The translations under genes and the position numbers were made by a program. DNA of 64,000 nucleotides, from NCBI RefSeq assembly GCF_030219325.1, contig NZ_CP126625.1, positions 3,274,857 through 3,338,856 on the forward strand, given 5' to 3'. Under the pieces are notes generated by a model, which did no database searches, was not told the DNA's origin, and saw only the letters and a program-made list of their open reading frames with translations. Source of the DNA: Geothrix sp. (GTDB taxonomy: Bacteria > Acidobacteriota > Holophagae > Holophagales > Holophagaceae). Below, in pieces: positions 52,801 through 54,284 of the stretch (position 1 is the stretch's first letter; every line of letters begins with the position of its first letter).

Positions 52801-54284
52801 TCCGTGCCCAGGATGCGGTATTCCAGGTCGGTGCTCAGCGCCAGCTTGGCGTTGATCTTGTGGCGGCCCACCTTGCTGAGGTCGTACTTCTGGGGATCGA
52901 AGAACATGCCGAACAGGAGCTTCTTGCTGGATTCCAGCGTGGCGGGCTCACCGGGACGGATCTTCTTGAAGAGCTCCTTGGCGGCCTCTTCGCTGTCCTC
53001 GGTGTGGTCCTTGGCGAGGGTCTCGGAGAAGACCTTGCCGGTGGCGTCGGCCTCGGGGAAGCAGACGTCGAAGGACTGCACGTCGTTGGCCAGGAACATC
53101 TCGAGGTGGGTCTGGAGGAAGGGCTCGTTGGCCTCCATGAGCACCTCGCCGGTGCCCATGTTCACGATGTCCTGCAGGAGGACGGCGCCGTCCAGCATCT
53201 CGCGGGACACGGGCACGTCCTTGATCCCGGCCTTCTCCATCTGGTCGAGGAGGCGGCGGGTGATCTTCTTGTCCTTGGCCAGCACCACTTCCTTGGTCTT
53301 GGGGTGCTTCACGTCCTCTTCAGTCTTCTTGCCCTGGAGGTGCTCGCCCACGGCGACCGTGAGCTTGCCCTTCTTGAGGAAGAAGGTCGCCGGGGTGTAG
53401 AAGTGGCGCAGCATGGGCTCATTGGCGTTCAGGCTCTCGCTGAAGAGGCCCAGGGCGCGCATGAAGGTGGCGCCCAGGAACTTGCGCTTGCGGTCGATGC
53501 GGGCGTAGAGCAGGCCCTTGGCATCCAGCTCGAACTCGATCCAGGAACCGCGGTAGGGGATGATCTGGGCGCTGTAGAGGCTCTTGTCCGGGGCGATGCT
53601 GAAGAAGACGCCGGGGCTGCGGTGCAGCTGGCTCACGATCACGCGCTCGGTGCCGTTGATGATGAAGGTGCCGCGGTCGGTCATGATCGGCAGGTCGCCG
53701 AAGTAGACTTCCGAATCCTGGCTCTGCTTGAAGCGGCGGTTGCCCTTGTCATCCTTGTCGAACTGGTTGAGGCGCACGCGGATCTTGAGGGGGGCGGCCA
53801 TGGTGGAGCCGCGCTCCACGCACTCGTCCATGCCCATCTTCTGCTTCATCGCGACGGGCTCCTGGCACACGTCACAGATGGTCGCGGCGTTCTTGTTGCG
53901 GGTGCCGCACTTGGGGCAGTCGACCGTGGGATCCTTCGGGTGGTCCGACACGATGCTGTGGCCGCAGTGCTTGCACTGGGTGCGGAGGTGCTCGAGGCCC
54001 AGGTACTTCTCGCACTTGCAGGCCCAGTGGCCCACGGTGTAGTCGAGGAACTCGACTTCGAGGTTGGCGTCGGTGCCGTCGGGGTTCTTGCCGTTGTGCA
54101 CGGGGAACATGGACTCGAACACGGCCTTGAGGCCGCGGGTCTCCCGCTCGCTGTGCAGCAGGTTCATCTGGAGAAATTCGTCGTAGCTCCGCTTCTGGAT
54201 GTCGATCAGGTTCGGGATGGGAACCAGGGACCGGATCTTGGAGAAGTTGTGGCGCTGGCGGTAGATGTTCTGCTGAACACTCAT
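49893..54284 (-). CDS. rpoB: DNA-directed RNA polymerase subunit beta, with an extra Cys-rich insertion
   Basis: A 1463-residue subunit (E. coli: 1342). The ATG at 54284 has GGAGC upstream and gives the normal N-terminus; the longer frame is not supported. The rifampicin region [30 protein letters not shown], and the C-terminal [24 protein letters not shown] are intact. Between [12 protein letters not shown] and [17 protein letters not shown] (about residues 88-150; 53835-54023), where E. coli beta has only a few residues, lie eight Cys: CxC (89, 91), CxxC (104, 107), CxxC (123, 126) and CxxC (137, 140). The first half repeats the W-x-C-x-C-x-K-Y and spacing of the beta' zinc domain. No frameshift is needed to read it. 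The rest of the protein is ordinary. Confidence 0.98.

What the first reader, a model, noticed from the sequence alone, without database searches (positions are those of the whole stretch)
53835..54023. RNA polymerase beta subunit carries a Cys-rich insertion that copies the zinc-domain pattern of beta'
Seen directly: about 60 extra residues at RpoB residues 88-150 with CxC-x12-CxxC-x15-CxxC-x10-CxxC. E. coli beta has no such domain between its equivalent of FLDYTVG and the conserved EC-x-x-RG. The first part, WACKCEKY ... CKHCG, matches the beta' zinc-binding domain encoded next door, WECLCGKY ... CDKCG, in the W, both Cys pairs, the K-Y pair, the final CG and the exact spacing (12 residues between pairs). 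This suggests that a beta' zinc-domain module was copied into beta and joined to a second zinc ribbon. The location is in the N-terminal protrusion/lobe region near downstream DNA. I do not know of a described beta subunit with it.
Basis: partly seen in the sequence, partly recalled or inferred. Interest (0 to 1): 0.9.

Follow-up and report, generated by a model that had tools for sequence, protein, structure and literature searches.

The report
Zinc-ribbon insert in Acidobacteriota RNA polymerase
In most sampled members of one bacterial phylum, the Acidobacteriota, the RNA polymerase beta subunit carries an extra domain of about 65 residues that probably holds two zinc ions, on the side of the enzyme near the upstream end of the DNA bubble; I found no description of it, and its job is unknown.

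Summary
RpoB (window 49893-54284, minus strand) has a 67-residue insert (residues 86-152, window 53829-54029) with CxC-x12-CxxC-x15-CxxC-x10-CxxC. It replaces a short loop at E. coli beta ~76-80.

It is not a local oddity. A profile of the insert hits 266 of 296 genomes of the phylum. A tree built without it puts it on the deep branches, with nested losses.

The likeness of the first half to the beta' zinc domain is real beyond cysteine and glycine spacing (0 of 200 shuffles reach it), but weak in open searches (own-genome rank 4, E 0.008). Four loss events removed {C1,C2,C7}, {C1,C2,C7}, {C1,C7} and {C3,C4,C6}. That fits nested zinc sites, C1C2+C7C8 and C3C4+C5C6 (4 of 4), and not the beta'-like pairing C1-C4 (0 of 4). 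So a copied beta' module is not supported, though not excluded.

The insert sits in the beta1/protrusion domain, near the upstream bubble edge, not downstream DNA. Best reading: an ancient, non-essential zinc-ribbon annex, probably a docking or upstream-DNA contact surface. Function is inferred. I found no description in the held papers; the 2010 insert catalogue could not be read.

The parts
49893..54284 (-). rpoB, RNA polymerase beta subunit, 1463 aa, host of the insert
   Evidence: translation without stop; PF04563 match in the own genome; model matches E. coli beta, Foldseek E 1.7e-40
53829..54029 (-). the insert, RpoB residues 86-152 (67 residues in most rows read), replacing a short loop at E. 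coli beta ~76-80
   Evidence: AlphaFold2 model of residues 1-614 has pLDDT 87-92 over residues 81-150 in blocks of ten
54012..54020 (-). C1 and C2 (C89, C91): inferred outer zinc site, first half
   Evidence: lost together with C7 in f34 and L189, C1 with C7 in L052 and L208
53865..53876 (-). C7 and C8 (C137, C140): inferred outer zinc site, second half
   Evidence: as above
53964..53975 (-). C3 and C4 (C104, C107): inferred inner zinc ribbon, first knuckle
   Evidence: kept in 12 of 12 fully readable f34 genomes that lost C1, C2, C7; lost together with C6 in L042
53907..53918 (-). C5 and C6 (C123, C126): inferred inner zinc ribbon, second knuckle
   Evidence: as above; strands at residues 110-112 and 120-122 lie between the two knuckles in the model
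54165..54167 (-). M40, host residue conserved where the insert is present (weak lead for a packing contact)
   Evidence: M/I/L in 190 of 190 rows with all eight Cys (rows include duplicates); A, A, A, K, F, L, D and (against the idea) M in the eight genomes that lack the insert; M in the two genomes with remnants
49600..49665 (-). beta' (RpoC) N-terminal zinc-binding motif used for comparison, RpoC residues 62-83

Best explanation
An ancestor of the Acidobacteriota gained a zinc-ribbon domain of about 65 residues in a surface loop of the beta1 (protrusion) domain of RNA polymerase beta (E. coli loop ~76-80), and most of the phylum has kept it. The eight cysteines most likely bind two zinc ions in a nested way: C1, C2, C7 and C8 clip the base of the insert, and C3-C6 form a zinc ribbon at its far end. 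[quoted passage not shown] It most likely works as a rigid accessory platform that contacts a factor or upstream DNA and tunes open-complex or elongation-complex stability. Shown: presence, spacing, nested losses, joint loss of cysteines, host domain. Inferred: the single ancestral gain (from the tree), zinc binding, the pairing, and the function, which is the weakest step.
For: Phylum-wide: 266 of 296 genomes at E <= 1e-5; 278 of 297 genomes matched the first 228 residues, most of the rows listed over nearly the full length. Tree of 83 rows without the insert columns: insert-bearing rows on the deep branches, absence only in nested clades, fewest changes of presence 4 counting the outgroup. 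8 Cys in 30 of 30 diverse rows chosen for that alignment. Zinc-ribbon families: DZR matches 30 of 30 members, best E 4e-7, Zn_ribbon_3 29 of 30. Nested pairing: 4 of 4 loss events against 0 of 4 for each of the other two pairings. Confident local model, pLDDT 87-92. Position: structural alignments start at model 155 / E. coli 85 and model 220 / E. coli 150. Beta1-lobe near the upstream bubble and bound by CarD and Mfd: PMC4593161, PMC7672476, PMC7864632 passages. Most conserved outside the Cys are the C2-C3 stretch with GLEHLR and the end after C8 (entropy 1.82 and 1.71 bits against 2.85 and 2.70).
Against: No zinc was measured. The pairing test rests on four events; if Cys couples are counted as units its chance level is 0.037. 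By sequence alone C5-C8 also looks like a one-zinc ribbon (Zn_ribbon_3) and C1-C4 like beta'. Losses show it is dispensable. Net charge is only +1.7 on average, range -5 to +9, so DNA binding is not implied. RID-domain proteins (Mfd, CarD) occur in 39 of 39 genomes searched, with or without the insert.
Confidence: 0.55

Rival explanations
1. A segment of the beta' N-terminal zinc-binding domain was copied into beta and joined to a second ribbon; C1-C4 form one beta'-like zinc site and C5-C8 another.
For: Same CxC-x12-CxxC spacing, shared WECxCG start and CxxCG end; hhalign 96.8%, score above 200 of 200 shuffles with Cys and Gly held; beta'/gamma are the only chains that match from position 1 among the 60 of 244 PDB rows shown; NCBIfam RpoC/gamma models match 10-13 of 30 members, best E 7e-4; C5-C8 matches Zn_ribbon_3.
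Against: Joint Cys losses never fit this pairing (0 of 4); f34 keeps C3-C6 in 12 of 12 fully readable genomes without C1, C2, C7. Open-search significance is marginal. Zinc knuckles often share such features by convergence (established knowledge).
Confidence: 0.15
2. A generic zinc ribbon (DZR, Rpo12 or TFIIB type) was recruited from elsewhere; the beta' likeness is convergence of zinc knuckles. This agrees with the best explanation and speaks only of origin.
For: DZR 30 of 30, Zn_ribbon_3 29 of 30, TFIIB-type PF08271 24 of 30 members; archaeal Rpo12 E 3e-4 over positions 16-44, that is C3-C6, better than beta'.
Against: None of these covers all 67 positions strongly; short Cys-rich profiles attract many families.
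Confidence: 0.55
3. The insert is a neutral phylum marker: folded, zinc-bound, tolerated, without a role of its own.
For: Eight genomes read in three families lack it and two more keep only remnants; one zinc site decayed in four events while the other stayed.
Against: Kept with near-constant length and conserved non-Cys residues (GLEHLR, V, L) in most of a deep phylum (266 of 296).
Confidence: 0.25

Closest known systems
Beta' (RpoC) N-terminal zinc-binding domain
   Same: CxC-x12-CxxC, W/E before the first Cys, G after the knuckles; likeness above all 200 shuffles
   Different: Lies in beta; Cys losses suggest C1C2 pair with C7C8, not C3C4; lacks the KYKR...GVEVT context seen in the beta' rows
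Zinc ribbons of DZR / Zn_ribbon_3 / Rpo12 / TFIIB type
   Same: CxxCG knuckles, N between C6 and C7, strands between C4 and C5 in the model
   Different: Inserted in a host loop, starts with CxC, nested arrangement of two sites inferred
Lineage-specific inserts of bacterial beta (SI1/beta-i4, i5, i9, i11; BEAN domains)
   Same: In-frame accessory domain at a surface loop of beta, restricted to a lineage as far as tested, dispensable
   Different: Sits in beta-uD1/protrusion, none of the five sites named in PMC11515920 (sections 5 and 6 read); Cys-rich and about 65 residues, no TGD/E BEAN motif
C-terminal zinc site of archaeal/eukaryotic Rpb2 (recalled)
   Same: A zinc site in a second-largest RNA polymerase subunit
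   Different: Different end of the protein and different domain (recalled, not tested)

Membership tests
RpoC N-terminal zinc-binding domain | CxC-x12-CxxC spacing | tested here: met
   Same spacing in both proteins
RpoC N-terminal zinc-binding domain | Those four Cys bind one zinc (recalled from solved structures) | tested here: inconclusive
   Joint loss of Cys speaks against it, 0 of 4 events fit; no structure or metal data
RpoC N-terminal zinc-binding domain | Profile match at family significance | tested here: inconclusive
   NCBIfam: TIGR02386 13 of 30 members, best E 0.015; PRK14906 11 of 30, best 0.0037; gamma PRK02625 10 of 30, best 7.3e-4; all far below whole-protein cut-offs, which a 67-residue piece cannot reach; own genome E 0.008; pairwise hhalign 96.8%
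Double zinc ribbon (Pfam PF12773 DZR) | Score over the curated cut-off | tested here: met
   Insert of L067 30.0 bits against cut-off 27.3; 30 of 30 members match at E <= 10, best 4.2e-7. Single scores of the other members, the window's included, were not shown
Double zinc ribbon (Pfam PF12773 DZR) | Solved-structure fold match | tested here: inconclusive
   Insert-only model pLDDT 61, best VIA Z 3.0 over 41 residues, rmsd 2.8
Lineage-specific insert of RNA polymerase beta | In-frame domain absent from other lineages at a fixed site | tested here: met
   Absent in E. coli; in 288 genomes of another phylum, about 20 candidates scored in each, only G299, which also holds a second RpoB without it, has it whole; fixed site in the Acidobacteriota. 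Most other phyla not tested
BEAN insertional domain | Insertion within uD2 or uD3, TGD/E motif (PMC11515920) | tested here: not met
   Insert lies in uD1 (E. coli 1-152 in their Table 1) and has no TGD/TGE (sequence)
Zinc-binding domain | Binds zinc | not testable with these tools
   Needs metal analysis

The most novel reading that the evidence does not exclude
[quoted passage not shown] A thin hint: of 39 chosen genomes, the 9 with no second, shorter RID protein all have the intact insert, while all 15 that lost it or one of its zinc sites have one (related genomes of uneven completeness, not independent).
Probability: 0.2. Interest if true: 0.75.

Novelty: new variant of a known kind. Interest (0 to 1): 0.5.

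Why it matters
Bacterial beta is one of the best known proteins, and the zinc of the bacterial enzyme is taken to lie in beta' (recalled). A conserved zinc-ribbon annex in beta across a major soil phylum, on the domain where CarD and Mfd act, would be a new kind of lineage-specific polymerase part and would make Acidobacteriota polymerase a test case of how such inserts tune initiation. Natural lineages that lost one zinc site, or the whole domain, are ready-made comparisons.

Tried and rejected
Considered and rejected or left open. (1) Restriction to Holophagae: rejected. (2) Presence in other phyla: three of the 80 named loci had other labels. L123 (Acidimicrobiia) lies in G297 and L142 (Woeseiaceae) in G298; the phylum sample of G298 includes G297 and consists mostly of insert-bearing genomes, and both loci nest inside the phylum in the tree. 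L152 (Verrucomicrobia MAG, G299) has a second RpoB without the insert in the same MAG, so its contig is probably a contaminant. In 288 genomes of the phylum of G299, one more, G407, matches over positions 18-60 in a 576-residue frame that I did not examine. Other phyla could not be used as centres. (3) Fold of the insert alone: no clear match; inconclusive. (4) Residues that change when the insert is lost: the beta and beta' alignments gave many changes shared by the related clades f4 and f30, which are not independent, and few shared with f53; among these only M40 and the nearby P44 are non-conservative, and one insert-less genome (L203) keeps M40. (5) A CarD/Mfd swap: RID domains occur in 39 of 39 genomes, so no simple swap. 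(6) First hhalign run: three of its four comparisons printed a stale file and were discarded; one search replaces them. (7) Alignment A1 held one row on the wrong strand and was replaced by A2. (8) Tree: five rows without the anchor motif were dropped before counting (L046, L049, L051, L054, L193). (9) The length count (81 of 84 at one length) used a pattern that fixes all spacings but one, so I do not use it as evidence of fixed length beyond the C4-C5 gap. (10) Literature: eight searches on the insert and two on Mfd/CarD; I saw listings (15 of 16, 15 of 24), and passages or sections of seven papers. None described this insert in what I saw. The 2010 catalogue by Lane and Darst is not held; its numbering, as quoted elsewhere, leaves room for inserts i1-i3 before i4, so this site may be listed there.

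Full report
Observation. RpoB in the window is encoded on the minus strand at 49893-54284 (1463 aa). E. coli beta goes directly from YVSYRLG (G76) to EPVFDVQECQIRG. Structural alignments of the predicted model with E. coli beta begin at model 155 / E. coli 85 and at model 220 / E. coli 150, an offset of 70 after the insert.

Distribution. The first 228 residues matched 278 of 297 genomes of the phylum, most of the rows listed over nearly the whole length (the list is cut). A profile of the insert alone matched 266 of 296 genomes of the phylum of G298 at E <= 1e-5; genome sizes and contig positions show this to be the same phylum, and largely the same genomes, as (my inference). The 30 without a match were not read one by one there; they include the insert-less genomes below and probably gaps in assemblies. 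The three other labels are dealt with under Tried and rejected. In 288 genomes of the phylum of G299, with about 20 candidates scored in each, only G299 had the whole insert, on a contig that stands beside a second RpoB without it. So the insert is a mark of the Acidobacteriota as far as tested; most phyla were not testable.

Age and losses. In a tree of 83 RpoB sequences, built from the part after the insert, insert-bearing rows sit on the deep branches. Complete absence is nested: f53 (three genomes), f4 (two in the tree, three read) and f30/g45 (two), the last next to f30/g60 with a full insert. Two further genomes, L058 and L198, keep short remnants without the Cys set. Fewest changes of presence or absence: 4, outgroup included and remnants counted as present. 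The quick method was used, many deep forks are weak, and the outgroup is two long rows, so a single ancestral gain is the likely but not the proven reading.

Zinc pairing. Partly decayed inserts work as natural mutants. In family f34, of 14 genomes searched 13 matched; the 12 fully readable ones have lost C1, C2 and C7 (S, S, D) and keep C3-C6 and C8 (one with wider C3-C4 spacing); the thirteenth is a fragment that shows only the later part. In f6, L189 lost C1, C2, C7 and L208 lost C1, C7 (counted as one event, because the tree does not resolve them); L042 lost C3, C4 and C6 and keeps C1, C2, C5, C7, C8, while its sister L207 has all eight. In f26, L052 lost C1 and C7. With C1C2+C7C8 and C3C4+C5C6 as the sites, each of the four events hits one site only; with the sequential or crossed pairing none does. 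Chance: 0.0012 for a pairing named beforehand, 0.0037 for any of three, 0.037 if each couple is counted as one unit. A model of the insert alone was poor (pLDDT 61), and its fold search gave nothing above Z 3.0. Against the nested reading, C5-C8 on its own matches the one-zinc family Zn_ribbon_3 in 29 of 30 members.

Likeness to beta'. The first half of the insert aligns to the beta' zinc motif over 27 columns (hhalign 96.8%). When the beta' columns are shuffled with the cysteines held, or with cysteines and the two glycines held, the score of 38.5 is reached in 0 of 200 shuffles each (means 12.4 and 20.4). So the likeness is more than spacing. But in open searches it is marginal: in the own genome the beta' motif ranks fourth (E 0.008) behind the insert itself and two other frames that I did not examine. 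In the PDB beta'/gamma chains stand at E 0.009-0.044, below a double zinc ribbon protein (8e-10, summed over repeats), archaeal Rpo12 (3e-4, over C3-C6) and others (60 of 244 rows seen). Among NCBIfam models RpoC/gamma match 10-13 of 30 members, best E 7e-4, beside other zinc families with more members. Pfam's DZR matches all 30 members. With the nested pairing the four cysteines that align to beta' would not be one site. Convergence of zinc knuckles is the simpler reading; descent from beta' is left open.

Where it sits and what it may do. The host domain is the beta1-lobe, the protrusion. Passages of three papers say that it lies near the upstream part of the bubble or upstream DNA and is the anchor of CarD and of the Mfd RID (PMC4593161, PMC7672476, PMC7864632). 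The RID contact site at E. coli I117-K118-E119 is recalled, about 40 residues downstream of the insert. The most conserved parts besides the Cys are the stretch between C2 and C3 (GLEHLR) and the end after C8; f34 keeps GLEHLR or close forms of it although its outer zinc site is gone. This suggests a working surface or a packing face there. M40, in the first helix region, is M, I or L in 190 of 190 rows with all eight cysteines (duplicates included) and varied in seven of eight insert-less genomes, one of which has L; the eighth keeps M. A packing contact is possible. Loss of the insert is tolerated. My best reading is an accessory platform for a factor or upstream DNA; a neutral, merely tolerated domain is the main functional rival. 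RID-domain proteins are found in 39 of 39 chosen genomes; a second, shorter frame (165-545 residues, CarD-like in size in nearly all cases) is present in 15 of 24 genomes with a full insert and 15 of 15 with a lost or damaged one. This is a weak hint of overlap, not corrected for kinship or completeness.

Novelty. The insert catalogue in PMC11515920 names five insertion sites in beta, none in uD1 (sections 5 and 6); it leaves out small inserts under 50 residues without known relatives. Eight literature searches brought no description in what I saw. The 2010 catalogue by Lane and Darst is not held and may list the site. I therefore rate it a new variant of a known kind, the lineage-specific insert of beta, with an unusual zinc-ribbon make-up and place.

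Noticed in passing
window 53709-53732 (RpoB residues 185-192): The stretch that corresponds to E. coli VKDIKEQE (the recalled RID-binding site) reads FKQSQDSE in the window; among 112 aligned RpoB rows, which held no other member of its family, no other has it, most read IRDIKEQE or MRDAKEEE. Seven of seven other rows of its family looked at read KQSQ or KESQ; L062 of the same class reads IKEQ.
   Followed up: partly
window genome G000: Only one RID-domain protein was found, in a 1147-residue frame (Mfd size); no CarD-sized one, unlike many other Acidobacteriota.
   Followed up: no
window 52092-52238 (RpoB residues about 683-731): A second insert of about 42 residues relative to E. coli beta 597-605, present in 110 of 112 aligned rows, also where the zinc insert is lost; the two others are E. 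coli and a truncated row, L084.
   Followed up: no
window RpoB near E. coli 1121-1181: The insert i11, stated in PMC2939025 (passage) to occur in Acidobacteriaceae, is missing here (6 residues against 60).
   Followed up: no
L123, L142, L152: Public MAG labels Acidimicrobiia and Woeseiaceae belong to genomes that group with Acidobacteriota, and a Verrucomicrobia MAG (G299) holds a contig with acidobacterial rpoB beside another rpoB.
   Followed up: yes
L235 (G407:C52:19751-19882): A 576-residue frame matches insert positions 18-60 (the C3-C8 part) at E 4.4e-7 in a genome of another phylum; not looked at further.
   Followed up: no
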